64,000 nt of DNA. Origin: Clavelina lepadiformis. Taxonomy: Eukaryota; Chordata; Ascidiacea; Aplousobranchia; Clavelinidae. How positions within the stretch are numbered: the first letter of the stretch is position 1; every line of letters begins with the position of its first letter. The DNA lies in NCBI RefSeq assembly GCF_947623445.1, contig NC_135244.1, positions 3,472,001 through 3,536,000 of the forward strand, read 5' to 3'. Position numbers and translations under genes: made by a program. Of this stretch, positions 17,425-54,424 are shown piece by piece. Below the pieces are notes generated by a model. The model was not told the DNA's origin. It worked only from the letters and a program-made list of their open reading frames with translations, and did no database searches.

Positions 17425-18509
17425 TCCCGGCTTTTGCAAGACGAGCTTGCTTTTAGCCTGCCTTATTGTTTGTTAGATCTTCCAGGTTCAGTCGTTTCAA
17501 CGTCAACATTGCACTTACAACTTAGTGGTAGAGTTCCTTTTTATTTACGTACCAACCCGTTTGTAATACGCAGTTTCGTAAGATGTTATTACCGCGAAGT
17601 CAGGCAGTTGGTCTGTGCTTGATCTTATCCACATTTCTTGCCTTTCTGTGCTGTCAAAGTTTTCATGATTACGTCGTATTTGTATTGAGGTTATGGACTT
17701 AAAATTTTACGTATATTAGATTTGCTGGTGGTTTGACAAATTGCTACGTTATTTAGCAAGGGCTAAACACCTGTTTATGTGGTCTGGTGTTTATTTCTAG
17801 TTTGATATTGTCGCCCATTTCTTATTTTTATATTTTGCGGGATTTGTTGTCTGCGTAAAATGCTTTACTTCGACCTGAGTTATTTCCTATGTCTGAAAAT
17901 TATGTTATTTGTTGTGTTTTACTCTTTAGATTTTAGAATAAGAAAATCGACTCAATGCTATGAAGATGTCTTTTAATCGAAATCAAGCAATAGCTTGTAT
18001 GCAGACTTCTGAATTTTGTTGCGCAGCTGATCTTTCACCTTTTAATGACAGTATCATGCAAAGCAAAAAATCAAAACTAAAATAGTAGTAAAACCAGTAT
18101 TCGTTTCTTTATTCCACGAAACATAATTACGGTATGCAGTATTGTTAATCATACTAAACAAAATCACAACAGTAGCCTATGTCCTACAAAGGTTTAAAAT
18201 GATCACATGATAGGATACACAATTACGCATAATTGTTGGCACTTTTAATGCCACGACAATTAAGAACCAGTTGACTTTAAACGTGGGTCACTGCGGAGTT
18301 CCGAGCACGGTCGTCAGTATCTGGAAAATCAATGATTACAATGGAGTAATGAGCACAAGAGACACCTGGACAAACCATGGCGATTAGAAGCGTAATCGGC
18401 AACGGTTTTATTGCAAGTAGTGCTGCAACTAGCGATCTAACTCTAAGTTTCTTGCATGCTTTACCGCTATACGTGGAAAAATGTGACAATTAAAATCAAA
18501 ACTTTTTGT
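17425..18509. other. NADK2 / coiled-coil gene 1 convergent intergenic region
   Basis: The two genes converge here. The region should hold the NADK2 3' UTR and, on the minus strand, the 3' UTR of coiled-coil gene 1. A minus-strand open frame at 18277-18489 has a hydrophobic stretch but lies directly after the stop of the array gene and shows no other support. No AATAAA was identified for NADK2. Confidence 0.4.
18407..18412 (-). terminator. Candidate polyadenylation signal of coiled-coil gene 1
   Basis: AATAAA on the minus strand (within GCAATAAAACCG), about 100 bp beyond the stop of the gene that ends at 18510. Confidence 0.4.
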
Positions 18510-21311
18510 TCAACCATCACTAGATGACGCACCAGATGCTGATGATCGCAAAGTGCTTTGGTTTGAAGAACTTGACGTTACAGAGATGACGTCATCGTGG
18601 GCTTGAATTCCGGCAGAGGTTGTGGGAACTTCAGGAAGTGCTCTTCCGTCTGTGACGAAAACACAACTCATACACCAATCCTAATTATCTGGTATATCTT
18701 ATTGACTCATACCAGCACTTCGGTTATTTTGAGTGTTGATTGCGTTTCTTGGCAATTGATAGTTTCGCAACGGTGGTCGTCTCGAACCCCTGTAAAAAGT
18801 TACAAATGAGGCGATATTGCGTATAGAAGATTACCGTTGAACACTTGTTACGGAATTACACTTGCCTCGTAGGAATGCCGGGCTGAAATGGCAAGTTATA
18901 GACGTATTCGTATTCATTCTCTTCGTCGCTTTCAGCACTCTCTTCGGCGCTTCCCCGGTCGCTGTTTAACTCTTGATGTTCTTTCATCTTCTCCGACAAG
19001 AGGAAATCGTAATGCTTCTTACAAACCTGCAGCTTTTCGTTCCTCTTTTGTAGTTTCTGTAAACAGTTTTAGTTTGCATGGACTTCGACATATGTACACG
19101 GTAATGTATAGGTCTAATCTCGGCATTTTACTTTCGCCGTGGGCAAATAGGCTTAGATGAAAAATATGAACCACACCTTGGTTAAACTGCTTGAATTACT
19201 TAGAGCAAAGTGTTAAATGTTTCTATCGCAGACGTGGTAAGTTCTCCAAAATATTTGTGTCGTTTTAAAAAAACTTTTCATGATATTCTTTCCACAGTTT
19301 GTAACAAACTTAACTCTGACTTTAAAAAAAGTCCCTACATTTTATCTTCTCTAGAAGGCATATGGGGAAGGCCCCGTGTTGTTTGGTAAACCGTGACGGC
19401 ATGGATTATGTTACCTCCGTTTGCGTACCACTTCTATATTTTGCAACGAATATTTGCAATATTTTAACTGCAATGTTTTATGAGAAAACATCTACTTCTG
19501 ACCTTTGCTTTTTGGTTCGTCAGTTTTAGGCAATTTTTCAGTGATTCCATTGCAAACTGGTAATTCTGTAAAATATGAAATTATGAAAAATGGTCGCCAA
19601 GCACTGATTATTAAAAATACAGTTATTGAAGATTTAAATTGCTCTATAGTGTTATAGTTCGAACGTGACAATGGTTGAAAAGTATAATATTTCTTCACGG
19701 CTCTATTACCGCTATTTGGCTTCCTTGATATAAACGCTATAACCATTTATGCATCAAACATTTAATTAAGGCACTGTTTAGATTCTAACTGTATAATAAT
19801 AACGGTATATGTTTGTTTTGAAAGTTACCCAAAATACTTTATGTCGTAACGTCATTTACCTTTACATCGTCTTCTAAATTTTTGATCATGTCCTTGGATT
19901 GGTCAATGTTTCTTTGAAGGTTCTACATTCAAAATGAGACCATTGTTTTAAGTTTTAAAGGTTTTTTTAAACGGTATTTGGTATTTTATAGGTGTTGCAC
20001 TTGAACAAACGTGTTACCTGTATATCAATCTTTGCAACCTTTCTCTCATTTTCCAAAACAGAAATCCTTTCTTGACTTTCCTACACAAAATTAGTAGATA
20101 GCAGCAAAAATTGCATTATTTGTTGGTAAATTTCATTTGGGTCATATAAATGCAGGCTATACGTGTATATGATCAATAGGATTAATGAATAAACGATAAA
20201 CTATAGCAAAATATGACCTTTTATTTGAAACAAAATTTCAAAAAAGTTGGAAATATATTGATGAGCTTTTATTTTGCAAAAAAATACATAATTCCAGTCT
20301 TGGCTGTGTATACAATTAAAATTTTTGAATTGGTTTTAGCATTTCCATCAGGAAGTTTTGCAAAGTTTAAACAAGGATAAAAGCTTAGCAAGTGACAAAC
20401 CTATCTTGCTAAATCTATGATTCGACTCATGTTTGTTGTGAAACTTACTCGTTCACTTGCTTGAAGCTGACTCTCAAAAGAAGTTACTTTTCGTTCAAAT
20501 TCTCCGATTTTTCTGCGCAACATCTGCAAGAAAATTTGAATAAAAGATTAAACGCAATAATACTCAGTAGTTTAGCGTGCAATCTACCGCTCAGAATCCT
20601 TTCTTAATATTTGGTTTTACGTGAATTGTGGCATCCTGTGAAGTTGACTCAGTAAAAAACCTTCTTACTTACGTCATTTTCATTTTTAGCCCGATCTGTC
20701 ATTCGTTCCTGTTCGTGACTTTGCTGTTTCCACGCCTAAAAAGTAAACATAGATAAAGAAGTTTTCTCAAAAGTAAATGCAAATTTCGAACTCTCATTTC
20801 AAAGTACAAGAAAATTACCTCTATTTCGCGACCACTTGCCGCTATTTCCTTTTGCAGGTCAACAATCTGCTCGCTCTTGGCCTGAACGTAAGAATAAATT
20901 TTGCTTTAGCGACATAAAAATCCAAAAACTACTTAACGTTGTAAATATGGAAATTGTTAATCTAATGACACCGTTTTTATAAAAAACAAAGAGGCGTAGA
21001 TAGATCACCTTGTCTTTATTTTCGAGGACTTTCTTTTGTTCAGAAATCGATTTCAAAGTTTCTGCTATGTATGGTGCTTGTAGTGAAATTGCTTGTATGT
21101 TCTTAACAATAGTAAATAGTTTATTTTTAAATTCTGTTTTAAGACTTAGTATATATTGGCCTGCTTTTTAAAGGATATTGTGCGTCTTTTAATCAAAGGC
21201 GCCATAAAAACATTATAAAAATATTCTTACCACAATTAGGTTTGAAAAAGTGTCCACAATTCCATTGCAATCGCCTCCATCAGTTGCTGATGTCACTGCT
21301 TGCTGAGCCAT
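18510..21311 (-). CDS. Coiled-coil array gene 1, 323 aa, novel family
   Basis: Eleven exons join in phase: 21311-21231, 21101-21009, 20881-20819, 20735-20673, 20523-20449, 20080-20018, 19922-19860, 19565-19503, 19056-18866, 18789-18713 and 18649-18510. I do not recognise the family. Order of parts: a short N-terminus starting MAQQAVTSATDGG; a long predicted coiled coil in which exons 3, 4, 6, 7 and 8 are each exactly 63 bp (21 residues, three heptads, phase 0); an acidic segment ending ENEYEYVYNLPF; a basic exon (RGSRRPPLRNYQ); and a Ser-rich tail containing SAGIQAHDDV. No signal peptide or membrane span is evident. Exon 9 ends in a GC donor (GAG/GCAAGT). The start is fixed by identity with gene 2 (MAQQ). 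A final splice after SSSD-G, as in genes 3 and 4, is possible. It could be a cytosolic scaffold or adaptor; that is inference. Confidence 0.75.
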
Positions 21312-22498
21312 TTTTAGGCTAAATAACTTACTGCGCTGTATAATATTCCAAAAGACCGAACCTGCAACCTGCTGCAAACTTGTCCGCTGCCACTGAATGT
21401 TTTTGTTGATGTCAGACAAAGAAATCTTGGTTGGAACAAGGCAGCCGCTGATAAGGAAGTGAAACCTCACCCCTGTCACAACTCACCGATTCCATGATCT
21501 GTGCGTGACGGTGACTTTCAGCGGCGTTCGACAGATGTGTTTTTGCTCATAAAATGCCTTTTGAAAATTGCACGCATTGACTCCTCTTCTGTCTGACATT
21601 TACTTTAACTTTGATTCAAAGTTGACGAATAAAGAGAAACTTGAGCGAAAGAAAGAGACTCGTGAATTTTTCCGCATAACAGCGAATAATTTTTCACATT
21701 TTTTCTGTGAACACTCAAAAATGATCATGGTCTGCTTTTTTCCCCAACTTGTCTTCTCCGAAACGTGACATCAAAAAACAACAACGTATGCAAAAGCTAT
21801 GTATGCATTGTTAGTTATCACCTACACGGCTAGTCACATGCTCTGCGTTTGCTCTTCAAACTATTAATAATCTTTTATTTCTTCACTGGTGCGCAGTAAA
21901 AACAACGTTCCTCATTATTCACCAATACAAACACCAGTCCAACTTACAAAGAACCAAATGCAGAATGAAAAGTAAAACTCTTGTCCATAAAGCCATAGCG
22001 TAACCAACTATAATTAAAGTGTGAGATAAGAAATTGTTGGGCAGCTTAACAATCTTCGGGGGGAGTTGTGGGTAAATGCGTAAACCGTGTACGTGTGTAG
22101 TAAACTTACTAAAAACAATAAAAGGCGGCACAAGTGGCATATCGATAAATTACTAATACCAAACACGCCGTCACACATTGTGTACAAAAATGGTCGCAAC
22201 AATACGGGTGGAATACATCTTATTATACACCTAAAAATACATCATGAAATACATCTAACAATACGTTTGAAAACATATCAAAGTGCAATTCTACACTAAC
22301 ACGCTTTTCAGCATGGTTAATACACAAAGAATCAACAAACGTGAAATTTGGTGACATACTTTGTTTGTTATTCGTTATTTTACAGATGCACATTTAACGG
22401 TTAATATAGATAATTCAATGATGTCGTTAGGTACAAGCTGCAATGAGCAAAATTTGCTAATCACAGATCATAAACAAAGCAAAGCAACATAAAACATG

Positions 22499-22567
22499 TA
22501 TAAACGTTGTAGTTGTACTGATCAGAATACATACATATATAAACGTTGTAGTTGTACTGATCAGAAT
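22499..22567. repeat. Two-copy direct repeat, 30 bp unit, 39 bp period
   Basis: The 30-bp stretch beginning TATAAACGTTGTAGTTG at 22499 is repeated identically at 22538, separated by 9 bp. Too short and local to assign to an element; probably a replication-slippage duplication. Confidence 0.8.
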
Positions 22568-22770
22568 TTACACTAATTTGGAAATAACGTTAAACTGAAA
22601 AAGCAACGCAAGCCACTGTGGAATCGACCAGGCTATTTGTTTCGGAGCGATTGTTGGTTTCTGAAAAGATAATAAACGTCAGTGAGATTCAGCATAAAAT
22701 AGAGAAATGAACGGATACATTCAAACACTCAAGAGGCCAACTGACCGAACGTAGTGTATGGCCAGTTCAC

Positions 22771-22806
22771 ACACACACACACATGCATAGGCTATATATA
22801 TATATC
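22771..22806. repeat. CA / TA dinucleotide microsatellite
   Basis: A (CA)n run is followed by a (TA)n run with a short spacer, between coiled-coil genes 1 and 2. Confidence 0.8.
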
Positions 22807-23090
22807 AATAAGCTTCAGACAGGTAATACAGCCTGTGATGCGATGTGTGTTTGTGTGTATTTGTGTATATGCTCATACAGCTTACTTTACGTTCTATACC
22901 AGTCGTTTGTTCGATTAAATTTTTGCTTATGCATGGACTTATACATAAGTATATTAGTATATACTGTATCTTGTAACGTATGCTTACACAGATACTATGA
23001 CTGCATGCGTACAACAATGGACAGGTTTGGGTCAAAATGAGCTTTTCACATCCGACAACGGAATAAATGATATCTCAGTTTGTGCAAATA

Positions 23091-26000
23091 TTACAAACCA
23101 TCGCTGGATGGCGTAACAGCTGTCGGTGACTGCCAAAAACTTCGGTTTGAGAAACTCGAAAGTGAAGAAGTGACGTCATCGTGGGCTTGGGCTCCGGCAG
23201 ATGTTATTGGGGGGTCCGGTAGTGGTCTTCCGTCTGTGACAAAAATTGTGTAGTTTATTACTAAGCGGCATCGGTCCTTGTTATGCTGGACCAGCACCAG
23301 ATACTCCAGAGGCTGCTTTTCAAATATCGGTTAACTTTTAAAGCAAGTTTTATAAATTGCGTCTTGCTTCATTGATAAACCTTTCTATCAAGTCAGCTGA
23401 CTACAATAAAGATCACCCAAGTATGACGTGTACATGCCTTGACCGTTCATTGTGTTTCTTAAAGAACGCCGGAATCTCGAAGACAGCCGTCTTGAACGTC
23501 TTGATTGCCTGCAACAAATTACAAGCGGTCTTACTTAATAAGCTTTCAGACGTGGTCGTTTGTGGATTTTGTGAATTTATTGATCCAAAGTATTTGCCTC
23601 ATGGAAGCGCCGCGCTGAAATTGGACGTAATCGTACTCATTTTCTTCATCTTCTTCTTCATCATTGCTTTCATCTTGCTCTTCACTGCTGGAATCTTGCT
23701 CTTCTTTCATCATCTCCATCAAGAGAAACTGGTAGCGCTTTTTGGATTTTTTCAACTCCTTATTTTTTTGCTTCATTCTCTAAAAAAAGAAACCAGGTTT
23801 TTTAACTTATCCGCCGTGGTGTAAAAGCTGGTGAATCCCCGAAGCTTTGCTTCCCTCGGGGATGCATTTGTTCGTGCAGGTTGGATGCGAATCGTTTTAA
23901 CTCGATCGCGTGCAAAGGTGTTTTCGTCTTATTGTTTAGACCGATTCGCAAATATTTTATACAAATATTATACAAATATTTTAACCACCTTTGAACTCTG
24001 TCTCGTCAACTTCAGATCGTGGTTTAGCAATTTCGTATCAAGTTCATCGATCTGCAAAATGCATAAGAAATAGCACATTTCATCGTGCTTATTTGTGTGT
24101 TTCCAAGAGCTTTTAACAGGCGTTTGTCTTTTTTCGTAACGTATAGTAAACTTTACCTTTAGTTGTTCTTCCAAGTTTTTAATGATGTTTTTCAAATCGA
24201 AAACATTTTTTTGAAGGTCCTAAAATAAACAAAATTACAACATTTGCATTACAAATGCCTATAAAAGAATAGTTTATGAACCAAACATAATCTTTTCAAG
24301 TTAAAACAGAAATACGTTCATACCTGTTTTTCAGTCTCCAAAGATCTTTTCTCATTTTCCAGAGCAACGGTCTTTTCCACTTGCGCCTATTGGTTAAAGA
24401 GAGAAACTAAGTTGATTCAAAATAAATTACCTTTGAACATTCTTAATATTTTACAGTAAAAGCATTTACTACAAGCAATAATCCGTATGCTATCTATAGT
24501 ACTTACTGTAAAACCGTTTTTCACTGAATGGTTTTAAGTAGACCACTGGTTCCCAACGGGAACCACACTTGGAGCGGGAACCGTTGGCTTAAAATCTTTA
24601 GAGAGGAAAATTTGGCCGAGGAAGCAAATGGAGAAAGATAATAAAACTGGGCAGGATTTTGGGCTTATTGCTTCTGCGACCGTATCGTATTACTATTGTA
24701 ACTGTTTACCAGTCAAAACGCTTACTCGGGTCGTGGTTACATTCTTAAATTGGCTAAATGCATATTATTCGTTTAGTGAAAAAATTTTCGCCAAGGTTTT
24801 AGGAGCATTTTTACTCGTTTAAGATTTGCGAGTAAATTTTGCCTTTCTTTATGACATCTCAATGTATTAAATGTTATTGCAAGTTTATGCTGACAAGGCA
24901 ACAATTGGAAACAGTAAGAGAATAGTATTTAAAAAAGCGTTAAGAACAACTGGGGTAGACTCAGACGGTGTAAACTGTAAACCCTTTGTGTATATTTGCG
25001 GCCAGACGACACTTACATAGCGTCAGCATGCGATGCTATCTGTCTGAAATTCCTGTAATGATTTTGCTGATCCGCCTCGGGTGTTTATATTTATGAAAAG
25101 TTGCGTAAAATATAGAAATTCTTGAACAGTAATATTTTGAAAATCGTTTTGTTTGAAAAAAAACAAGGCTCCTACTTGAAGATCGTTTTCCAGTTTGTTG
25201 ATTTTTGGTCCACTATCTTCTATTTTCTTCTGCAATGTCTGTTCAGTGTATTAAAACACGCAGATAAAATATCATGTACACCTGACACAACTTTTGTCAT
25301 ATTTCAAACCATCTTAGCACCTCACTGCTGTATATATACCTTGTATTCATTTTCTAGATGTTTGTTTTGGTCCAGCAGAACTTGCAACTCTTGTTTTGCA
25401 TCTGGTGCTACTCTTGAAATTTGATCAAAACTCTTCAAACAAATAAAATAGAATATTATTTGGTTGTAACCAGGACACCAGGGTAAACAAAAACTACATG
25501 TTAGATAAAAACAGAACAAACATTTACGGAGTTACTTATATGTGACTTTGCAATTAAATTTATCAATCTTATAACTAATTAAAGCTTTTTTATTTCTGCC
25601 TATAACGTGCCAAAATTTTATCAAAATTTTTCAACACTTAGGAGAATAATTAGTGTTTGGTCGCTATTTTCACCATTGCTGTGTTCACAAATCTTCGCAA
25701 TGCCTTTGCTGGTGTACCATGTCATTAGTCTTACTGGCCTGTTGTTTTGCCATTTATCAGAATAAGAAGTAAGCTAGTTTAAAATTTGGTGACAAAAGAT
25801 ATGTACAGTATTTCCTTTTCTTGTCCTTTGTAGTCATGTAATTCGTATTTTAGTAATGCAGGAAGTATTTAGATCAGATGCAATATCTATTTCCAAGTCT
25901 ATGCTTTGGTCCTGGACTTTTCATTAAAAATTAGCCCTAACTATATCGTTCCAATGATTTCAAGCTACAATAATTTTTGCTTTCGAATGCTTCCTGTATA

Positions 26001-26251
26001 CTGACGCTAGAAACATACAAGTTGTACGACAGTCGCTCGCGGAAAATGTGGTAACTTCAGATATTTTCAAAGAATAATGCATTTACGCCACACATAAGTT
26101 TTAAAACAAATATGTGTGTATATTTATGCGTGTTTCGTCCAAAACAGCTAGTAACGTAAGAAATCTTCACCTTAAGCAATATGTTAAGGTTATGGAAACC
26201 CGGTCTGCCATCTTGTCCGTCTGGTCCTGAGGAAACTGATTGCTGGGCCAT
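23091..26251 (-). CDS. Coiled-coil array gene 2, 273 aa, paralogue of gene 1
   Basis: Nine exons join in phase: 26251-26171, 25432-25340, 25238-25176, 24386-24324, 24219-24157, 24051-23989, 23779-23598, 23508-23438 and 23233-23091. Exons 1 and 2 have exactly the lengths of gene 1 (81 and 93 bp), and four 63-bp exons encode 21-residue, three-heptad modules. Then follow an acidic segment with a long Glu/Asp/Ser run ending ENEYDYVQF, a strongly basic exon (RQSRRSRRLSSRFRRSLRN) and a Ser-rich tail containing SAGAQAHDDV, as in gene 1. It has two fewer coiled-coil exons than gene 1. Exons 7 and 8 appear to use GC donors (GAG/GCAAAT, AAG/GCATGT). Start: MAQQSVSSG by homology with gene 1; an in-frame Met four codons upstream exists. 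An intron holds a decayed hAT-like end near 24540. Function unknown. Confidence 0.75.
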
Positions 26252-27564
26252 TTCATTAAACAATTGTTTCTCTATTCCGGAAAACTATATCTACAACAAT
26301 CGATGTTGTCAACCTTTTTACCTTGAACAGTTCCAAACGCTATCAGCTGATTCCGCCCATTTCAATGAGTGCTTAAAACGGATTCGGTTTGGACCCACCC
26401 ATTGTGACTCTCTCGATTTTGGCGAAGAGAAAAAAGCACGTCAGATTTGAAACGCGCTTGCTTCGATCCGACTAAATGTGATGAGAGTTTTTGACCACGC
26501 CCGGATGGATCTTAATCTTTGTGCATACCTACGAGGATTATATCTATTTGGTTGCATTTGGCGATGTTATGAGTGGTAGCTATATTTATATACGATGATA
26601 CGTGTAATATGTCAAAGGTCGATTGAATTCTTCTCAAACTACTTACTTGAACAATTCATTTTACGCAAGAAAAGCAAAAAAATTACTTTTAAAATGTCTT
26701 TTTTCTAAGTGACACGCCTTGACGACAGTTCTATTTACAACATACAGTGTGTACTTGTTATATATACGCTCCAATGTAAAATATAAAATGTTTGCAACAA
26801 ATTCGATGGCATTTTGCAACTGCCATTTTTTAAAGATGTATAATATAACTATAAGACAACGTATCTATAGGAAAAATGATGTTGCTCTGAAAAACTAGTA
26901 AACTTCTTATGAAATGTACGATCTTACGTATGAATTAATAATAATAGTAATTAATAACCCATACGCTGTTGCATGTAAATAAAGTAGAAAAGTAGGTTAT
27001 CGAAAAGACGGCAAACAAAACAAGATACACCAATGCACAACTAACTAATCTATGCAACAACAGAAAAACCACAAGTGAATCAGAAAAGAAACAGTAGCAA
27101 TGGAGCGAACAGCAAACAGTACGCTTTCTGTAGGTTTGCTTTAAAACATTAAATAGTGGAATTATAATTAATAATTATAATAATAATTTTAATTAATAAT
27201 GAGCCGTTGTGTACTATTACATCACAAAGGCAGTTTTGCAGTTGGTCAAATTAGTGAAGGTGCATCTCTGACTACAGCTATCGTCTGCTCACGTGGAATA
27301 ACGACCTTATGGACAAATAAAAATAAATGGATTTTTGTAATAATTGGATTTCGTTTTATGGACCCCTTAGGCTTAAAGCATCTTCTCGGATCCCTTAGGG
27401 GTTTATGGACCCCAGGTTAAGAAAGGGAGGAATCCGTCAGTTTCCAAAATAGAAAAACAAGCAGTGAAATGATCTCAAAGTAACGCAAACAATTTATACT
27501 AATTAGTAATGATTTATGCAATGATTAATGTAAAGGATGTGATTAGCGAGTAAATAAAGCTGCT
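26252..27564. other. Intergenic region between coiled-coil genes 2 and 3
   Basis: No exon recognised. Around 27160-27200 is a strongly AT-rich stretch of TAAT words. At 27355-27415 short inverted words (GGACCCCTTAGG, CCCTTAGGGG) suggest the remnant of a small transposon. The promoter of gene 2 should lie just right of 26251. Confidence 0.4.
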
Positions 27565-30146
27565 TTAAAGCGTTTCCGACTTGCGTATTGATGTCGGGGC
27601 CGACAAGCGACGATTGGGCGTGGGTGGGCCTGTAAATGAAACAATATTATGATTGATTGATGCTTTTTATTTTGATGCAATGAGGATATATCAGTTAAGA
27701 AACGTATTGATGATGCGCACGTTCTCACGTCTTCACGTACATGGAAGTTTTAAGTACGTCGTTTTTCATCAAAGAATGTTGACAAGGCATTTGATAAAAG
27801 TCAAAAGTACTCGCCTTGATTTGAAAAGCTAAACGTCGAGCTTTGATCTCTCAGCATTTGAACCTGTACCGAGCCTTCTGAAGAGCTTGATTCTAAATCA
27901 CCGCAAGGTTGCTCCGCGCCCTCTCTCGTCCTGGGATGTCGAAGAACACGTGGTGGAGGTAGAGAGGGAAGCGGTGGTTCTGAAAAAGTGTATGACGTGT
28001 ATGTGTATGACGTGTATGACGAAAATTTAACTTTGTATCATTCACGTGGTGCCATTACGAAGATCAAATCACTTTCATCACCATCATCACCATCATCATA
28101 TGACAAAAACTTCATATCATTAACATTTCGTCTAATAGAGCCTCATGCTTACTTTCATTACTTGACTGTGGCGTGGGAAGGGTTTTACACCTTTGCGATG
28201 TCCTGATAAAAACATACAAATGTCACAGTATAGTTTAAAAATGCAATGTAATAATATCAATTATTTTGATAAACATAAATATGTTTCTTTCAGTATTGCT
28301 TGTTTTACAGCAGCATAAAATTATTAAAATTCCATTTGTTGTCTGCAAGAGATTCAGACGTTGGCTTTAACCTGAATTTATTGTTTGAAAGCACTAAGTA
28401 TAACGCGCACATATTCTGAAGGCAAAATGTAACCCCTTGGGGAATCCCCCAGGGAAATTTAAAAAGTTTCACATCGTTTGCGAGTTGCGTAGCTTTTTGC
28501 TTAACCAATGACGGAATGTGCCATTTTGAGTGGGTTTTGTTCACTCTCGTTCTCTTTTATTCTTATTTTGTGCGCGTATTCAGCTAGAAATTTGCAATGC
28601 TTTTGCCCACACAGGAATAAAAAAAAGCAGTGCTTGTACTTACCTCCAAGAACTGTCCCGTTTGAAAAAATTTTTTGGTCTGGTCTCTCCTGATGCGCAA
28701 CTTTCTGCTGCTGCTTGGTCGACGTTAAGTTGAACGTAATAGGAGTTTGGATCTTCGTATATGTCATCTTCTATGTCGTCTTTATCTTCGCATTGTCCTA
28801 AGTGCTCTAGAAGTACATTGTGTGTCAGCTTGTGCAAATGGATGAGGTCTTTAAACGCCTTGCTATGTCTGCTTTTGCCCTGCGTACAAAAGAAATTACC
28901 CGAATGAGGGACAGTGACAATATGCACTCGATACAGCTTGTTGGGAAATTAAATTATGCACAATATTCGGGTCAATTTCTTACTGTTTCTTTCTTCTCAA
29001 AGTTTTTGCGAAGTATTTCATTTTCCTTCTGTAGTTGGTTTCTTTCTTGGCAAACTCTTTGACATTTCTCGGCAAACTCCTTCAAATTTCAGAACTTTTA
29101 GCTTACAGTTGTGCATATAATTAAAAATGCTTGTTGCATGTAGCCACATAGTTTTGTTTCATTACTGTGTGATGATATTATAATTAATGTAATATACGGG
29201 TTAAATAAGATTTGGAAATCTCGTCTTCAAGGATCGAATCAGCGAAGCGTAACACTGCGTCATGATAACTTCCCGTTATAACTTGTGCTATAAAATTTCG
29301 TGTTGCCCTTTTTTGCATGCGTTTAGCTTGTTGTATAAGTTTTTCATTAGCGTTTACTATTATTACTATTAGTATCAGTAATATTATGCAGTTGACAATA
29401 AGAAAAAAGTCTACCGAGATCAATGCTGTGAAATGGACGTCTTTATGCTGTTGATGTGCCAATGTTCTGTTTAAATGTAATCGTTCAAAGAAGAATTAAT
29501 ATAATCAGTTTATACTTTATACAGTTGTCTTTCTTGTGAAAACTACTGTTGAATTCAATTTGAAGAAGTTCAGTGTCAAGTTAGACAACTTCGTTGTCAC
29601 CTTCACAAGACAATAATTCATTAAGGTGAACAATTAAGTCTAAGGTTGAGAAAAGCAGACAACGACCTTATGACACTCATATACCATCGACCGCAATAAA
29701 CAATTCAACAAGCAAACATTGTAGTGAAGTGGGTCAACCCGTCAAGTTCAACTACCATATACACCCATTCCATTACAAGTGTGATTGATCTTAGTATACT
29801 TTTTGCTTACTGTCAACTGCATAATATTACTGATACTAATAATAATAGTAAACGCTAATGAAAAACTTATACAGCAAGCTAAACGCATGCAAAAAAAGGC
29901 AACACGAAATTTTATGGCACAAGTTATCAAGGGAAGTTATCATGACGCAGTGTTACGCTTCGCTGATTCGATCCTTGAAGACGAGATTTCCAAATCTTAT
30001 TTAACCCGTATATTACATTAATTGTAATATCATCACAACTGCTTAATCAAATACTTTGAATAAATTTGTGATTTTACTTTTTTCTCTTTGGTTAAAGCTT
30101 CGACTTTGACTTTGAACGCCAATAATTCCTTCTCCAGATCTTCCAT
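27565..30146 (-). CDS. Coiled-coil array gene 3, about 226 aa
   Basis: Six exons join in phase: 30146-30078, 29079-28984, 28879-28644, 28202-28153, 27979-27815 and 27629-27565. It opens directly with a coiled coil (MEDLEKELLAFKVKVEAL) and has a second coiled-coil exon. An acidic exon follows with DDIEDDIYEDPNSYYVQL, then a small basic exon (RTSQRCK), a Pro-rich exon (LPSLPPPRVL) and a short basic tail. Exons 1, 3 and 5 have exactly the lengths of gene 4 (69, 236 and 165 bp), and the acidic-to-basic-to-tail phase pattern (2, then 1) equals genes 1 and 2. Intron 1 is enlarged to about 1 kb by an inverted-repeat element. The last junction uses a GC donor (AAG/GCGAGT). If unspliced, translation ends at 27801 instead. 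An unseen upstream exon is possible. Confidence 0.65.
28055..28100. repeat. CATCAC trinucleotide-type microsatellite
   Basis: A run of CATCATCACCATCATCA units within an intron of coiled-coil gene 3. Confidence 0.6.
29167..30038. mobile_element. Long inverted-repeat element in intron 1 of coiled-coil gene 3
   Basis: Two near-identical arms of about 260-270 bp (29167 to about 29437, and about 29782 to 30038) face each other across a spacer of about 345 bp. Outer ends read TGTGATGATATTA in both arms. Each arm carries the same open frame reading inward to outward, with a hydrophobic stretch then ANEKLIQQAKRMQK and YHDAVLRFADSIL. Differences between arms are few and include one 3-bp indel that keeps frame. 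It may be a transposon with long terminal inverted repeats or a recent inverted duplication. No clear target-site duplication was found, so the class is open. Confidence 0.6.
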
Positions 30147-32387
30147 TCTATTTCAAGTAATTTATTCCAAAATTTATGAGTATAGGCCTATTGTCAATAT
30201 CTGTACTTAACATCAAAAGCCTGAAACTCAATGAAAAAGAAGTGAAGTGCGATTTTTCAAGGTCAGAACAATTTTAACTCTGCCGTTCCATTGCAACACA
30301 TCCGCTTTTTGTCACTTAATAACTGTGAAGTTTAATTATTAACAGCCACCTTAATGTATGTAAGATGGATCGAACACTAAAATATTAATACAAAATGACC
30401 CTCTGCAGTAACTAAACATTGCAACGTTTTAGTTGACTCAAATGCGTCCAAAATTTCCTGACTTATTTATAAGACTAATGAGAGAGAGCAAACCACTTTA
30501 TTCGTTGCAATCTTTTAGCTGTGCATTTCTTCTTCTTCTTCATTATGATTATCTTCAAAGCCAAAGTGTATAGGCTATGCCAAAACGAATCTTTTTCTTT
30601 TGTTTTATTTAAGGAAACAACGGCATGTGGTGGTTTTTGCGTTAACGGTTCCCCATTAAGGAATATATAAAATTTGACGATTAAACATCAACAATTGTTT
30701 AAATCCGTATTAAGATGATGTCATAGACAGTTAAAGCTTAACTGGGGTGACCGGAGACATGTCCGCCCAATTTTTGAGCAACTATCATAGCATATCACAA
30801 TTGGAACTGTATTCTGTAAACTGCCAATGCATATCACACCAAGTTTGTCCTGTCTAAAGCTTTCTAGCAAACTAGGTCCCTGTCTGGAAGACTACCGCAG
30901 AGTTGTTTTTCTGCGCCTTACGTAAATGTAATAAACTCAAAGCAAACCAGCGCAAATAAGCAAAATATTATTTTGCAGTTACTATTTGTTTATTAGGTAA
31001 TAATCTGTTCCTACTTCAGCTATCAAAGATTTAATGAACTTTGGGGCAGCCGATTGCTTGTTTTCACTAACTGGGTTTTGTGCATTTTCTGCGTTGCCGC
31101 TGATATTTTCCGCTTCACTCTAGAAAGATTAGGCCTATATGTTCAGTGAAATTAGGCCCAAATCACGCATGGCTTTACGGGCAATTGTACATCAGACAAC
31201 CGAGGCTAAGAATAATAAAATGTTAGCAATTTACCGCAAAACGATTAATTACAGCAGCATAGAGTATACTGTCAGTAACTACTGTACAAGTTCTTCAAAC
31301 AACTTCTCGAGAGTTTAAACTAAACACTCGCCTTGTCCAAGAACATTACAGTCCTAAATACTAAATGAGTCTGCACCCACAAAGACATACATCTGTTACG
31401 TCACAATTCTATCTACAGGAGACTTCCCGCGCTTACGAGGAGCGAGCATAGTGATAGTCAAACGGTTGATTTCCTAAAGTACAAGAACAAGTCACATGTG
31501 AAAAAATAAAAGCATCAGTTTCTTTTAACTTCTGGTGAATCGAAATTCAGGCGAATCAAAGTAATTTAATCTTCGGTTACAAAGGAAGGCAAAGATGGAA
31601 TCCCCAGTACACACCCTGATAAACCCATTAAAGGTGCAATCTTAAAAGAAACGACGCTTTTTGCTTGTGTGAGGAAAGGCGTAAACAAGCCATGTAACAA
31701 TTGTGTACATCAGACAAATTCAAAGCGAAGCATATGACCAAAACTTTAAAAACGTTTGGTTAATATACATAACATGCATGTTAAGTACAGAAGAATGTGT
31801 ACATATAGGCCCACTCCATTGCTAAACAAAAGTATGTTTAAGAGTGAATTGCAAATGTCACACTGTTTTCACGTGAATGGTAAAACATACAAACTGGGTT
31901 TGCAGAATCGACAGATATAAATCTATAATCATGTACTACAAAATTATTTGTGCCAAGGTGTACAATACAAACACCGCATGACGCACCTAAAACTCAAAAA
32001 AGTTGTACCAAATTATGCTAAGACATGCTTATTGTAGTAAGAAGCATACATGTCGTGACACATGTTGTAAGACCGTGACACATATAATTTTCTTTATTTA
32101 TTAACTTTATTTAAAAAAAAATAAAAGATGCAATTTGTTTGTTTCTTTCAGGTTCGATACTAAACAGACTTCTTTTACACAAAAAATTACAAAACACTAG
32201 AAAGTAAGTTGCTTTTTGATGGCATTGCATCAGACGAGTTAAAAAAATCACTTTCGCTTATTGGCAAGCCCATGCAATAAATGAGAAAATGTTGTTGTAA
32301 AATACAGTAGATGTTAAAACGATCCTGAAAAACGTTTTGCGAGTGTCGATCGAGAACGTTGGGCTGCAAATCGAATGAAAAAGCAGT
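30147..32387. other. Intergenic region between coiled-coil genes 3 and 4
   Basis: I see no supported exon. Near 30740 the sequence GGGGTGACCGGAGACATGTC resembles the end of the MITE in NADK2 intron 1. The area should contain the promoter of gene 3. Otherwise plain AT-rich sequence. Confidence 0.4.
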
Positions 32388-34197
32388 TTACTTTGATGCA
32401 ATGTTTACATTTCGCTCAATAAATATTTTGCCTGGAAATACCAAATCTGTGGGTGAAAAGGAAAAACATCCCAAATGAACCGACAATACAATAGGACAAC
32501 CATAATATCAAAAGCAATGAAGACCAACCTTCGTTTGGAAAACTAAATGCAGCAGTTTCATCTCTCAGCCTTTGCGAACTTACTGAGCTTTCGATAGAAC
32601 TGGACTCCACATCATCACGAGGTTGAGCCGCATCGTCTCTCGTCTTTTGATTTTGAAGAACGCGTGGTGGCGGTAGAGAGGGAGGCGTCTGATCTGTGAA
32701 AGTTTATGTGACAAAAAGTTACATTTTGGTTCTTCGTGTACGGCCCGCTCATAAACACTTCATACTGTCGTCTTACATCACAGTAACGACACATCATTGA
32801 AACGTTGACCATAAAGTTAAAGCCTTACTTTTGTTTTTGAATCTTTGCGAGATCCTGATGAAGAAAAGGCAAAATGTTAAATTTAACTAATATTTTTGTT
32901 TGTTACTGTTTCACCTGAAAAAATTGTGAGTTCAAATCTACTTTTCACAGTTTTCTCTTAACCCAACTTAAAAGTTATAACATAGTAACCTGAACCTAAC
33001 TTATAACCTCTAAAACTTCCTCCTAGTCTAAATCTAACTTCAATTAAACCCCACTAACACGTTATGTGCCCATCCTCCTAACGGTCAAACCTAACCGCCT
33101 GTTTTAAAAATGTGCTGCGTGACCTACACATACGATGAGGTGAAATATAGTTGCATTCAATTCTTTCTAGTTTTGTGCGACGGTTTTACACGCATTTTAA
33201 ACTTTAATGCTATTTGATTATTGACTTATTGAAATACATTACAAATTACTTGTTTATAATAGATCTTTATGCGTTTAATGTTTTTAATCTAAAAGAAATG
33301 TTGACAATACGAAACATCCTACATAGGTTGAGCCCGCGTTATCTGTGGGGAAATTCCCGCGAAAATGTAAAAGCTGACGTCATTGCTTAGGCCCGATAGA
33401 TTGCGCAACGTCGGTGAAATATCCAGTTTTTAACATACTTTCTGTGTCTTGACTCTGTTGTGTGTATGTTGTTGGATTTTACTATGCTATTGCATGAACA
33501 TACACGGGCTCAAAAATGTTGATAAAACTGACCTCCAATAACTGCTCCGATTGAAAACATCCTTTGGTCTGGTATCGTCTTCCGATGATTCACACTCTGC
33601 TGTCACTGGATGCTCAAACATCAAGCCGACGTATGCATCTGGGTCTTCGTATAGATCATCTTCTATGTCGTCATAATTACATTGTCCTAAATGATTTAAC
33701 AGCACGTTGTTGGTCAGCTTGTGGACATGCATGAGATCTCTAAACGCCTTGCTCTGTCGTTTTTCGTTCTGTAAACAATCATGAAAGTGGCTTCCAATCA
33801 TATACACTTCTGCCTTTGAATTATGAAGACAAAGTTGCACAATGCAGTATGCTCGATCATAAATTTATTACCAATTTTCTGCTCTCGAGGCTTTTACGAA
33901 GTGTTTCATTTTCTCTTTGAAGTCTGTCAACTTTCTCAGCATTTTCCTTTAAATGGAAGCATCTATTAAAACGTTTAAGAGCCTACAGCAATGAGCAAGC
34001 TTATTGGAAAATTATACCAACATTTTCGTTGATTATAGATTTGTGTAATTATTCACAGCGTTCCTGGATCCAACCTCATGTTTACTTTTTTCCTAATCTG
34101 TTTTGCAAGTTTGGATTCAGATTTTTACCTGTCTCTCTGTTGTTAAAGTTTCGACTTCGATTTTCAGTTTTAAAACTTCTTGCTGCAGACTTTCCAT
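32388..34197 (-). CDS. Coiled-coil array gene 4, about 204-227 aa
   Basis: Exons 34197-34129, 33946-33872, 33768-33533, 32854-32829 and 32693-32529 join in phase. Order: coiled coil starting MESLQQEVLKLKIEVETL; second coiled-coil exon (VDRLQRENETLRKSLES); acidic exon with DDIEDDLYEDPDAYVGLM; a 26-bp microexon (RISQRFKNK); and a Pro-rich then Ser-rich exon (SLPPPRVL, AAQPRDDVESSS). Two endings are possible. Splicing at 32529 matches the exon length of gene 3 exactly (165 bp), and joined to 32431-32388 it gives about 204 aa. Reading through instead to a stop at 32416 adds a hydrophobic segment that could span a membrane (SSLLLILWLSYCIVGSFGMF), giving 227 aa. The first is favoured by homology. 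No known family recognised. Confidence 0.65.
32935..33130 (+). repeat. Dispersed repeat, copy 1 (partner at 35400-35600)
   Basis: This stretch, rich in words like CTAACTTC and CCTAACC, aligns with 35400-35600 in the same orientation: GTTATAACA(T/C)AGTAA, then CTAAATCTA, then CTTCA(A/G)TTAAAC, then CTCCTAAC. It lies in an intron of coiled-coil gene 4. The family is unknown; SINE or MITE. Confidence 0.55.
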
Positions 34198-38381: not shown

Positions 38382-39533
38382 CTAAATTGTGGATTCGGTT
38401 TGGACCGCTTGTTCGACGTCAGGGTTATTACGAGTTTTTGCAACTGTGACCTGAGTAGCGGTCGCTGATTTCTTGCACCGAAAAATGGCTGCCACGTGTT
38501 TCCGAAAATCTTTCCTTGCAATAATATAAGCAATGGGATTCACACAGGTGCGCGACCAGGTAAAGCAAACGGAGTACGTGGAGAAATAGACATAAAACCG
38601 TGCACTCGGTACTCCGCCTTTTATCCAGTAGGAAAAGGCGTTGTAAATATTAACTGTTTGCTCTGGCAGCTGGAACACGAAAAAGGCAACAATGATGAAA
38701 ACGATAAGCCTGGCCAAACTGTACTTTCTGGCGCTGCTGTTTAACAGCCTATTTCTGACAGTTATCAACACCTGGATGTAGCATGCACTTATCACAATCA
38801 TCGGTATTGCAAACCCGAAGATGAAGTTGAGGAAGTAATACGTCCCTAAGATGATGTTCCTATTCGGGTTGCCCAAAGGAACCATTGGCGCGCAGGGAAA
38901 CGAACACACGTTAAAAATGTCTTCCCCGTCTTCTGGCAAGTTGATTTCGGTGGAAGCATTCGCCGGAACAAAGGTTGTTGCATCCTCCGTTGAAGTCAAC
39001 TGCGGGACGGATGTGGCGTTAGCAAGCGAGCTGGCGTTTACGCGATCGTTTGCGATTACCCTTTTTGTTGCAGAGTCGTAAAGGAGACTAGGAACGGACA
39101 AAAGAAAAGCGGAAAGCCAAACCGCGACACAAACCCAACGCGCGATACTGAGACGACGGTATTTCTCCAAAGTCAGATAATGGACGACAGCCATCCACCG
39201 GTCAATCGCCATGGCAGTCAAAAAGAAGACACTTCCATATAAATTCAAGAAAGTGATGGTGCCCGCCACTTTGCACATGGCGTCTCCATAATGCCACGTC
39301 ATATCCTTGTAGTAGAAATCCACCCAAAAGGGGATAGTGCAGGCAAAAAGAAGGTCAGCTATAGCCAAATTAAAGAGATAACTCATCGATACTGTCCAGG
39401 AACGATATCGTCGTAATAAACTCACTATGACGAAGATATTACCAACGCTGGCAAGGATGAATACCGTAAGTAGAATAACAGTCAACGGAAAGAATTCGTC
39501 TTGCCTGTCGATATTCATGTTTTGATTTTCCAT
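38382..39533 (-). CDS. Class A GPCR, chemokine/angiotensin-receptor cluster type, intronless
   Basis: One uninterrupted frame of 383 aa from the chosen Met (MENQNMNIDRQDEFFPL); Mets 2 and 28 codons upstream also exist. Seven membrane spans are visible. TM1 has GNIFVIVSLL, TM2 LFNLAIADLLFACTIPFW, the TM3 cysteine is in DAMCKV with DRW in place of DRY, and TM7 has NPIAYII, matching NPxxY. The TM6 proline is kept (FFVFQLPEQ), but the usual CWxP is FQLP. Extracellular loop 2 is long, with three N-glycosylation sequons (NAS, NAT, NAS) and the disulphide cysteine in the VCSFPC block. The C-tail is short and basic, then Thr/Asn rich. Family-wise this is the peptide/chemokine branch of rhodopsin-like receptors. 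The ligand cannot be read from sequence. No neighbour suggests a pathway. Confidence 0.88.
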   Translation of the reverse strand: MENQNMNIDRQDEFFPLTVILLTVFILASVGNIFVIVSLLRRYRSWTVSMSYLFNLAIADLLFACTIPFWVDFYYKDMTWHYGDAMCKVAGTITFLNLYGSVFFLTAMAIDRWMAVVHYLTLEKYRRLSIARWVCVAVWLSAFLLSVPSLLYDSATKRVIANDRVNASSLANATSVPQLTSTEDATTFVPANASTEINLPEDGEDIFNVCSFPCAPMVPLGNPNRNIILGTYYFLNFIFGFAIPMIVISACYIQVLITVRNRLLNSSARKYSLARLIVFIIVAFFVFQLPEQTVNIYNAFSYWIKGGVPSARFYVYFSTYSVCFTWSRTCVNPIAYIIARKDFRKHVAAIFRCKKSATATQVTVAKTRNNPDVEQAVQTESTI

Positions 39534-39617
39534 TTGCATTAAAACTTTATCTTTGAATCTTATCACTGAAAACAAGATAATGGATTTATTGCTTGATATT
39601 AAATAAATCTCATACAC

Positions 39618-42600
39618 TGTATGATATTCGAAAAATATTTTAAAACTCCAGTAAAATTTAAAAAACTCTCGGTAGTCCTAATCAATGATCTAATTTCAAA
39701 TTGAGTTAAGCAATCATTTAATATCTATCAATTGCCAACATATAGCTTGCTCGCCAACTAACCGCATTTAAACGCCTTTTGTCTTAATATAGGACAAAAA
39801 CAGCCTTAACGCTTACAGCTGTGGTCGAGGTCTATTTCCAATTTAATAGCTCTTGAAATATAACTGTTGACGTGGTACATACGATCTACGACAAATGTTA
39901 ATCATTTTTGCTCTCTATCTGGCGTTTCCACAAAAGACATTTCCTTTCCAAACTGAAACGCTTCCTCTAGGCTGGCAAGGACAATCTGACAAATTCCTAT
40001 GATGGCAGATTTCAACAAAACTTACACCATATGCATATAACGACATGCATGACGTGACTAGAGGACGTGACGTCACGATCCCAGTTACAATAACAAAAAT
40101 AACCGTGACGTTATTTTCAAACTCATCAGTCATCACCTACTGGCACAAGCTACGTGCCAACAATCAAACGATAGCTTGGCTATTGGTCATGTTCTACTGT
40201 AGAGCTTGAAGTTGCGTTAACAACTAAATATTTTGAATTTCAAATACTCCACGGATTAAAAAGTAAACTCAAAATATCAGAGATTCAGTCGATTTGATTC
40301 GATATTCTGAAATATGCACAACGCTTGGTGATTTGCTTTGTTCAAAATAGGTAAATTTCATATAAATATAGCCAAATATAGCAACTAAACAATCGTTATT
40401 TGTAAACACGAGGAGATGGATGCGTTTTTTGCTCATAGAAAGAATGGTTTAAAGTAGCGCATTCATCTACATTCTATAAGGTTAATTACATTATACGGGT
40501 AACAAACTTTTTTTAAGCGTCTTAGCTCTGTAAAATTGCATATATCTGCAACACCTCCTATATAACAGTTTGGTAAACGAGTCAAAATATAACTTTATTC
40601 TACCCATTCAAAATCTTGCAATATATGATATATATAATATGTACGTTATTTGCATACACGTTCACATGTTGCCCGTCTGCTGCAAGAAAATACTTGGTAT
40701 AGCATAAATTAATAACCTTTAAAAATTGGAGTTGATTTATGTTAGTTGCGTGCAAACAGCGGAAATTCGAACATTTTTTCATCATGGATTAATTACATAC
40801 AGGCCGCCAATTTGGTAACAAGCACTACAGTTTGCTAAACAATTACAGAACTATCTGCGCATGTGCAAAAAGCAGCTTGTGTAAGCAAAATATGCACTGG
40901 TACGAGGGATAACGTAAAAATCATCATACTTTTAAATGTGTTGCTAACATTTAATTTTGGTTATTCTACTATATGACCATTAATTATTTCAATTCCATAT
41001 ACACCGATGTAAATCAACACAAACGAGTATTATGACCAGTATACACGATGAATAAACAGATATTCTAAAAATAGAAACTTTATTTACTTTGGTGGTTTCA
41101 GACTTCTTTTGTTATAGTTAATTTATATACGTAATATGTTTAAGCTTATGAAAGCATTACGTGACGCTATTAAGCCGGGATTCCACCGGGAACGGAATGG
41201 TTTGTTGTTAGTAGCCCATGCAAGCTGAATGTAAAGAAATGCGATTGAACGACACTAATTTATTCATGATGTCATTCATTTGTGATGTCAACCTATTTTT
41301 ACTTCGTATACTTTGGCACTAGAACACCTTGGCCGAGAGAATTTTGCTGAGAATTGACAACAAAAATTTACCAAGGCGGTGTTGATTATTTTCCTTTGCG
41401 GAAAATCCACAACAAAAATTGCGAAATGACACATTGTAAATTTTTCTCGCGGGGCTCCACCAAAAAATTCCAAATTTTAATTTCTGAAATATTGCGTCAG
41501 GATTTTGAAAATTTCCAAATCAATGACTTTCTGTTTTTCAAAAACTCTCTCAAATTCGAAGGAATTTCCCGCTTTTAACTCCACCAAGATTATTCACAAG
41601 AATAAGATGGAATATTACGAGAATATCTTTCGGCGGAGCCAAAGCCTTACTACAGTATAGCACTTTGTCAACAGCTTTTAACTAACCAGTCTGCTAATAA
41701 TCAAGGTATCATACCATTGGCCAATTCATATTTATTACATCATAATGGGTTTTGGAAGTTTATCCGAAAGCGGCATCTTCATTACCTGTTCTACATCTGT
41801 AAGGTTTGCCGCTTGTAAGAATAAATTTCTTGGTTAATTTTTAGTCTGTCATTAATTACCCAAAAAATTGTAGAGAAACCGACATTAGCTTTTTAACTGC
41901 TATAACTTATCAACTAAGCTAACACTCACTGAACCGAATTTAACCAAATCTATCTTCTAATCTCAATTTAATCAAACGCAAAATCAAAGTTTTAAACTTA
42001 TAACTTCTACACTTTACAGACTTATTTGCCTCTCTTCTAAGATTTTAACTAATAGATGATTTTCTTTCATTCCGTAACAACGTAGATGATCTGACAATCT
42101 ATTCTTACACTTTCACTTTCTGGCTAATGATGTCAACTTTAGACTCTTGAATAAGTCTTCCTGGGAATTAACTGTAGGCTATTTATAATACCAAGAGTCA
42201 CTCCAAGTATTTTTGCATTCCGCCCTCCCGTCCTACGTACGGTTGTTCACGTCCTGACCGAAAATGAAAAACAATTTGGATTTTGGAGCAATCTGCAAAA
42301 AAAAAGTAAAAAATAACTTGATAAACGAATACATTTTAACGTTGTCTATGCCTTCCAGTTTGTGAACTTTATTTCTCATTAATCATTTAAGCTTTTTGGG
42401 GTATTATATAACGGTAGCCAAAATACAGTTGTGACGTATGACATCCTGTTAAGTTATATGGTTTAGTTTTGGTGTCAAGTCTTTGGAAAATCTTTTTTTA
42501 AAGCTTAAGTCATAAATAATAGTTTATGAGCAAAGCATTTCTATGAATACGGTTTTATTTAACAATTTTTGCTTTGAAAACATGGCGTCATATATCGATA

Positions 42601-48144: not shown

Positions 48145-49278
48145 AAGCTGTATTGTTGCACAATACAAATCAATTTGCTTCTATCCATGTAGCTCATTCA
48201 ACTAGCATCACCACCGGGAATGCATTTTCCCAGGGGTGCTTGGAAAAAGCTCAATCGCCTTAGAACTGGCGTTGGCCTCTTCCGCTCAACAATGCACAAA
48301 TGGGGTATGGCTCCATCTGCGGCCTGTGAGTGTGGTGCAGAAGAGCAGACTGCAGACCACGTCATAACCACTTGTCCCACATACCGCCATCCTTGTGGAA
48401 ACCGTGGTCTGACAACAATGGATGAAAACCTGGTCAGCTGGCTAACAAACACCTGCCCTACAATATGAAGTTTTTGTTCCCTCTCTGAAATTAAAGAACC
48501 ATCTACTCCACACGAAGAAGAAGAAGAAGATTCAACTAGCATGAAGGAGTCTTACGAAAATATGAAACTTTTTCTTTCGAAGTTGCAATATAGCACTCAT
48601 ACATGGAAAGTTTGCGTTGATTTTAAAGTCGTAAATATGCTACTGGGTCAACAAACTGGATTTACAAAGTAGCCTTGTTTTATGTGTGAATGGGACAGCC
48701 GAGACAGGAGAAATCATTGGATTTAACGTGAGTGGCCGTTGAGGGAGTATCTTACACCAGGCTATAAAAATGTTTTACAGCCTGCTCTTATCGACAGATC
48801 TAATGTTATACTTCCACCATTACATATTAAACTGGGTCTCATGAAACAGTTTGTAAAAGCTCTCAACAAAGAAGGTGTATGTTTTAAATACATTCGGGAA
48901 AAGTTTCCTCACTTGAGTGCCGAGAAAGTTAAAGAGGGTGTATTTGTTGGACCTCAAATCAGAACACTCACCAAAGACCCCCAATTTCTTGTTACCATGA
49001 CGGATGTGGAAAAAAAAGCATGGCTCTCTTTCACCGAAGTTGTATCTAAATTTCTTGGAAATACTAAAGATCCGGATTACCAAAATATTGTAGAAAACAT
49101 GTTGGTTTCTTATCAAGCACTTGGATGTCTAATGAGTTTAAAGGTTCATTTTCTACGCGCACATTTGGACAATTTTCCTAAAAACTTGGGTGACATGAGT
49201 GAGGAGCATGGTGAACGTTTTCACCAGGACTTCAAAGCCATGGGCACAAGCGCCCTTAATACAACCGTTTTTGAGTAA
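48145..49278 (+). pseudogene. Decayed mobile-element ORF of unnamed dispersed protein family
   Basis: The translation in one orientation shows blocks I recall from a protein family spread in many copies through insect, hydrozoan and other invertebrate genomes: TWKVCVDFKVVNMLLGQQ, CFMCEWDSR, LPPLHIKLGLMKQFVKAL, GVFVGPQIRTL, LGCLMSLKVHFLRAHLD and EEHGERFHQD. Copy number and dispersal suggest it belongs to a transposable element, but I cannot name the superfamily with certainty. The copy is broken and is further split by a LINE fragment at 48209-48529. No terminal repeats were located. Confidence 0.6.
48209..48529 (+). mobile_element. 5'-truncated LINE, 321 bp
   Basis: A 13-bp target duplication, ATTCAACTAGCAT, flanks the insert (48196-48208 and 48530-48542). 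The insert encodes the extreme C-terminus of a non-LTR reverse transcriptase, with LNRLRTGVGLFRSTMHKWG and a Cys/His end CECGAEEQTADHVITTCP. It finishes with a GAA-repeat tail (CGAAGAAGAAGAAGAAG). This is typical target-primed insertion with strong 5' truncation. The frame is open from its start to a stop near 48468, and the identical duplications suggest a fairly recent event. Confidence 0.9.
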
Positions 49279-53989: not shown

Positions 53990-54424
53990 AAAAAGATTTA
54001 ATTGGGCTAGTTTATTTTGAATCTTCTGCAACAAGATAATAAATAGTCATTTGTTTAAATATGGTGCTGTACTGCTGCTCTAGACCCAGGTTTGGGAACC
54101 AACAACTTACGTGATATATAATTTTGGTATTAGTTAGTTTAACTTAGTGTTCAGCTTAACCTGACTTTCTGCATACTACCCAAAGTATACAATAGACTTA
54201 ACATATACTTGTGCTTTACTTCTGTCTAATCTGACTGTGTGGCTGCATGCGATTGAATGAACTAACCTAAATTATGTATCTACAATCTACATGCAACAAT
54301 TTTGCTTCATATTTTTGCTAGGAATGGTTATGCAGCTGACTAACTTAAGGGTGTTTGATATAAATTTAATTCAACCTGGGAAAAAGTGAAACCTTTTTTT
54401 ATTCTAAATTGATTGCATCGAAAT

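What the first reader, a model, noticed from the sequence alone, without database searches (positions are those of the whole stretch)
18510..34197. Four-gene tandem array of an apparently undescribed coiled-coil protein family
Four minus-strand genes in series (18510-21311, 23091-26251, 27565-30146, 32388-34197) share one architecture: coiled coil, acidic Tyr-bearing segment, small basic exon, Pro/Ser-rich tail with an (A/I)Q(A/P)(H/R)DDV motif. Intron phases are the same across all four (coiled-coil exons phase 0, acidic exon ends phase 2, basic exon ends phase 1). Exon lengths are identical within pairs 1/2 (81, 93 bp) and 3/4 (69, 236, 165 bp). I recognise no named family. A lineage-specific expansion is the simplest reading.
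Basis: partly seen in the sequence, partly recalled or inferred. Interest (0 to 1): 0.85.

Follow-up and report, generated by a model that had tools for sequence, protein, structure and literature searches.

The report
Sea squirt coiled-coil gene cluster
A sea squirt chromosome carries four neighbouring, related genes for small coiled-coil proteins with a tyrosine-bearing acidic patch and a proline-rich tail; they match no named family searched here and look like signalling scaffolds, but their function has not been shown.

Summary
Genes 1/2 and 3/4 are clear paralogue pairs under purifying selection. Homology between the two pairs is likely but BLAST does not detect it; it rests on shared intron phases, tandem position and short matched segments. 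The DDV motif is in three of four genes, and the last exon of gene 4 is uncertain. No Pfam model listed passes its cut-off, and four single-protein searches of the genome find no other credible member. Other tunicates could not be searched. My reading, inferred only, is a cytosolic coiled-coil docking scaffold: an acidic segment with tyrosine motifs (YEDP in genes 3/4, like the Y-E-X-P sites of SLP-76) followed by proline-rich SH3-type motifs. It lacks the SH2 domain of SLP-76/BLNK, so it is not a member of that family. Modest interest.

The parts
18510..21311 (-). Gene 1 (g1), 11 exons, 323 aa: 21231-21311, 21009-21101, 20819-20881, 20673-20735, 20449-20523, 20018-20080, 19860-19922, 19503-19565, 18866-19056 (acidic, Tyr), 18713-18789 (basic), 18510-18649 (P/S tail)
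   Evidence: exon placement, splice sites and phases; similarity to g2; pN/pS
23091..26251 (-). Gene 2 (g2), 9 exons, 271 aa: 26171-26251, 25340-25432, 25176-25238, 24324-24386, 24157-24219, 23989-24051, 23598-23779 (acidic, Tyr), 23444-23508 (Arg-rich), 23091-23233 (P/S tail)
27565..30146 (-). Gene 3 (g3), 6 exons, 226 aa: 30078-30146, 28984-29079, 28644-28879 (helix, acidic YEDP/YVQL segment), 28153-28202 (basic), 27815-27979 (P/S tail, SLPPPR), 27565-27629
32314..34197 (-).
31015..31119 (-). Coding-looking open stretch between g3 and g4 (SEAENISGNAENAQNPVSENKQSAAPKFIKSLIAE), AG before and GT after, phase 0; possibly an upstream exon of g3 or of an unmodelled gene; unassigned
   Evidence: highest codon score outside the models in the five gaps scanned (trained on these same genes); single copy in the genome
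29168..30037 (.). Dispersed foldback repeat inside intron 1 of g3 (217-nt arms); an insertion, not part of the gene's function
   Evidence: arms 94% complementary; copies on many contigs

Best explanation
Four tandem paralogues made by successive local duplications encode soluble, probably cytosolic docking scaffolds. Inferred working: the N-terminal coiled coil makes dimers or oligomers; kinases phosphorylate tyrosines in the acidic segment, creating SH2 docking sites; the basic exon and Pro/Ser tail add a charge switch and SH3 docking sites (RxLPxxP in g1/g2, SLPPPR in g3/g4). Shown: gene anatomy, pairwise paralogy, purifying selection, heptad periodicity, presence of the motifs. Inferred: cytosolic location, oligomerisation, phosphorylation, every binding partner.
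For: Exon anatomy and phases. Heptad periodicity strong in g1/g2 (0 of 500 shuffles each), weaker in g3/g4 (14 and 24 of 500). 63-bp exons of 21 residues, three heptads each, resemble one another (g2 exon 3 against exon 5: 8 of 21 identical, 0 of 1000 shuffles; best 5 of 36 exon pairs have 0 of 1000), which fits growth of the coiled coil by exon duplication. Tyrosines fall in the acidic segment: 3 of 7, 2 of 4, 3 of 3, 3 of 4. YxxPhi motifs occur there in 4 of 4, YEDP in g3 and g4. Acidic segment of g3/g4 pN 0.22 against pS 0.50. RxLPxxP in g1 and g2 is seen in 25 and 106 of 20000 shuffles of their C-terminal parts. SLP-76 carries Y-E-X-P motifs that bind Nck and Vav SH2 domains (passages of PMC3308951) and a proline-rich SH3-binding region C-terminal to its tyrosines (passages of PMC2803302), the same order as here. 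The one exon modelled, from g4, gives a helix at residues 7-27 and low confidence after it.
Against: Short motifs are cheap. Clustering of Tyr in 10-residue windows is no more than chance in g2 and g4 (1730 and 2170 of 5000 shuffles), marginal in g1 (301 of 5000) and notable only in g3 (24 of 5000). The two pairs do not share one motif form: no YExP in g1/g2, no RxLPxxP in g3/g4. No localisation, expression or binding data. The structure model has mean pLDDT 51.6.
Confidence: 0.35

Rival explanations
1. Structural coiled-coil proteins of centrosome, cilium, cytoskeleton or germ cells whose C-terminal tails are fast-evolving disordered linkers; tyrosine and proline motifs incidental.
For: The best sub-threshold Pfam matches of g1 and g2 are TACC_C (E 1e-4, 22.5 bits against a 29.9 cut-off) and HAUS1 (7.5e-4, 19.8 against 40), both of centrosome or spindle proteins; long regular heptads in g1/g2.
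Against: Any coiled coil gives such matches; none reaches its cut-off. The acidic and tail exons of g3/g4 are as conserved as the coiled coil (pN 0.22-0.23 against 0.27), so the tail is not a mere linker there.
Confidence: 0.3
2. A known animal family that has diverged past recognition in this species, with a function set by orthologues elsewhere.
For: The method is weak for coiled coils and disordered tails; the two pairs inside one array already do not find each other.
Against: No Pfam-A match over its cut-off; solved-structure matches are coiled-coil noise (best E 0.0027, laminin gamma-1; many weak hits to the p85 inter-SH2 coiled coil; one hit at E 0.94 for g3/g4).
Confidence: 0.25
3. Nuclear proteins: acidic segment plus Arg/Ser-rich exon acting in chromatin or RNA binding.
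For: Arg-rich exon of g2 (RQSRRSRRLSSRFRRSLRN), acidic run beside it.
Against: The basic exon shrinks to about 17 and 9 residues in g3 and g4 and is only mildly basic; no nucleic-acid-binding family matched over its cut-off.
Confidence: 0.1

Closest known systems
SLP-76 / BLNK (LCP2 family) adaptors
   Same: Y-E-X-P tyrosines in an acidic stretch (g3, g4) followed by a proline-rich region; soluble docking logic (passages of PMC3308951 and PMC2803302)
   Different: No C-terminal SH2 domain; N-terminal coiled coil instead; YExP absent from g1/g2; no sequence homology shown
ITAM-type tyrosine motifs (consensus recalled: YxxL/I x6-12 YxxL/I)
   Same: g4 alone has YDDI and YVGL with 10 residues between (positions 80 and 94)
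   Different: Not conserved: g3 has no Tyr at the first position, g1/g2 lack the spacing; no transmembrane receptor
TACC, HAUS1 and zf-C4H2 families (Pfam)
   Same: Coiled-coil-like sequence; best sub-threshold Pfam matches of g1, g2 and g3
   Different: All below curated cut-offs; no family-defining feature seen

Membership tests
SLP-76/BLNK adaptor family | C-terminal SH2 domain | tested here: not met
   No SH2 family listed for any of the four proteins in Pfam-A at E up to 10 (25 of 27 matches shown for g1)
SLP-76/BLNK adaptor family | Acidic region with YExP docking tyrosines | tested here: inconclusive
   YEDP in g3 and g4 only, 2 of 4 genes
SLP-76/BLNK adaptor family | Proline-rich SH3-binding region C-terminal to the tyrosines | tested here: inconclusive
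   RxLPxxP in g1, g2; SLPPPR in g3, g4; binding not testable
TACC family | TACC C-terminal coiled-coil domain over the curated cut-off | tested here: not met
   g1 22.5 bits against 29.9
HAUS1 | HAUS1 model over the curated cut-off | tested here: not met
   g2 19.8 bits against 40
zf-C4H2 | Match over the curated cut-off | tested here: not met
   g3 24.1 bits against 34.5
One four-gene family (g1-g4) | Detectable homology between pair 1/2 and pair 3/4 | tested here: inconclusive
   Phases agree in 4 of 4; junction segment 43 of 20000 shuffles with the splice-constrained Arg left out, tail 63 of 3000; hhalign E 0.037, probability 1.4%; no significant blastp
Lineage-specific tunicate family | Absent outside close relatives | not testable with these tools
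   No animal sequence collection was offered; only the own genome was searched

The most novel reading that the evidence does not exclude
A chordate side-branch evolved, independently of SLP-76/BLNK, a soluble coiled-coil-multimerised phosphotyrosine and SH3 docking scaffold, diversified by tandem gene duplication and by duplication of three-heptad exons.
Probability: 0.15. Interest if true: 0.6.

Novelty: new member of a known kind. Interest (0 to 1): 0.3.

Why it matters
Orphan tandem families are common in animal genomes, so the cluster itself is ordinary. It would matter more if the docking-scaffold reading held: it would give an invertebrate chordate case of SLP-76-like docking logic built on a coiled coil, and a clear example of a coiled coil growing by 63-bp exon duplication. 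Both can be tested with existing RNA-seq and other tunicate genomes.

Tried and rejected
Pfam, solved structures and a fold of one exon gave no family. A further last exon for g1 (18277-18320) and g2 (22590-22660), which would give all four genes the same terminal layout, was tried: the two do not resemble each other beyond chance (protein 751 of 5000 shuffles; DNA 62 of 500, and the best DNA alignment does not align the exons; other stretches downstream of g1 score higher), so I leave it out. A first pN/pS run used wrong frames for two tail exons; those two rows are dropped and one search replaces it. Botryllus histocompatibility factor was considered as a lead from memory: the one search pairing its name with coiled-coil found 0 papers and I did not compare sequences. 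Other literature searches for a matching family: listings only; 0 papers pairing Clavelina lepadiformis and coiled-coil; some searches concerned adaptors. An attempt to search the genome with the paired alignments was not accepted.

Full report
Where it lies. The window is C5:3472001-3536000 of a 209.06 Mb genome in 95 contigs. Contigs C5, C6 and C9 are 24,617,235, 20,771,506 and 15,725,681 bases long, which agree with chromosomes 5, 6 and 9 (24.62, 20.77, 15.73 Mb) of Clavelina lepadiformis in passages of PMC10884593. The paper gives 210.1 Mb in 102 scaffolds, so the assembly held here differs slightly. I take the species as C. lepadiformis, by inference.

The genes. One search gives four spliced frames on the minus strand: g1 18510-21311 (11 exons), g2 23091-26251 (9), g3 27565-30146 (6), g4 32314-34197 (6). 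All 28 acceptors are AG; 25 donors are GT and 3 are GC. The GC donors after g1 exon 9 and g2 exon 7 stand at the same place in the two paralogues. The phase series after the coiled coil (0 into the acidic exon, 2, then 1) is the same in 4 of 4. In g3 and g4 the P/S tail exon is followed by one more exon in phase 1; in g1 and g2 the models stop in the tail exon, and a further exon there is not supported. The last exon of g4 is uncertain. A tblastn of the four proteins against the window finds no fifth member.

Relatedness. g1/g2 and g3/g4 are clear pairs (blastp E 2e-27 and 8e-61; the reverse directions give 2e-37 and 2e-50). Codon comparison gives pN/pS intervals of 0.46-0.66 and 0.39-0.64, on 270 and 204 aligned codons, with dS 1.26 and 0.92, so the duplications are not recent and the frames are constrained. 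The end segment of g3/g4 is not visibly constrained (pN 0.53, pS 0.62). Between the pairs no search is significant on its own: blastp E 0.015 or worse, hhalign E 0.037 over 20 tail columns with probability 1.4%. Ungapped comparison anchored on the phase-2 intron was reached by 16 of 20000 shuffles, 43 of 20000 with the splice-constrained arginine left out; the tail alignment by 63 of 3000. With the shared phases and tandem order I hold common descent likely, not proven.

Extent of the family. Searches of the own genome with g4, g2, g3 and g1 gave 7, 13, 8 and 16 matches; 6 of these 44 lie outside the window, with E from 0.3 to 5.7. But none of the four searches found the other pair, so a member as distant as that would have been missed. 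The search takes no alignments for this genome. No tunicate or other animal sequences could be searched, so lineage restriction is untested.

Known families. Pfam-A gives only sub-threshold coiled-coil matches: TACC_C for g1, HAUS1 for g2, zf-C4H2 for g3, Vac_Fusion for g4, none over its cut-off (25 of 27 matches shown for g1). Solved structures: 31 distinct sequences at E up to 1 for g1/g2, best 0.0027 (laminin gamma-1), many the p85 inter-SH2 coiled coil; 1 for g3/g4 at E 0.94. I read these as coiled-coil noise.

Anatomy of the proteins. Heptad periodicity at 3.5 residues beats all 500 shuffles in g1 and g2, and is reached by 14 and 24 of 500 in g3 and g4. Among 36 pairs of 21-residue exons, 5 have 0 of 1000 shuffles as good; one of these is within a gene (g2 exons 3 and 5), the others between g1 and g2. 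The acidic segment carries 3 of 7, 2 of 4, 3 of 3 and 3 of 4 of each protein's tyrosines; yet window clustering of tyrosine is beyond chance only in g3 (24 of 5000), marginal in g1 (301), not in g2 (1730) or g4 (2170). Motifs found: YEYV/YVYN (g1), YDYV/YVQF (g2), YEDP and YVQL (g3), YDDI, YEDP and YVGL (g4); RALPEVP (g1), RPLPDPP (g2), SLPPPR (g3, g4, seen in the sequences). AlphaFold2 on the acidic exon of g4, aligned with that of g3, gives one helix (residues 7-27) and mean pLDDT 51.6.

How it may work. [quoted passage not shown] the DYESP tyrosines are Syk-family substrates and a proline-rich SH3-binding region follows them (passages of PMC2803302). The order acidic tyrosine segment, then proline-rich tail is the same here, with a coiled coil in front in place of other multimerising parts. 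I therefore commit to a multimerised docking scaffold at 0.35. It works like such an adaptor if the inference is right; it is not a member of that family, since the SH2 domain is absent. Structural coiled-coil roles are nearly as likely.

Verdict. As a kind it is ordinary. The statement that it is undescribed rests only on the Pfam and structure searches and on literature searches.

Noticed in passing
window 29168-30037: Foldback repeat in intron 1 of g3: arms 29168-29384 and 29821-30037, 94% complementary. Related copies lie on many contigs: 92 matches listed, 40 of 993 first-look candidates scored.
   Followed up: yes
window 31015-31119, minus strand: Single-copy coding-looking open stretch between g3 and g4 with AG and GT at its ends, phase 0; it cannot join g3 exon 1 in frame as modelled, but could join g3 exon 2.
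   Followed up: partly
window 38385-39677, minus strand: 431-codon open frame with a 7tm_1 (rhodopsin family) receptor match, E 3.9e-44.
   Followed up: no
window 54416-55270, plus strand: TANGO2 gene in one open frame, E 3.4e-58.
   Followed up: no
   Followed up: no
window 48727-49275 (+) and 52417-52770 (-): Open frames of 183 and 118 codons that look transposon-derived to me; neither matches Pfam-A at E up to 0.01.
   Followed up: no
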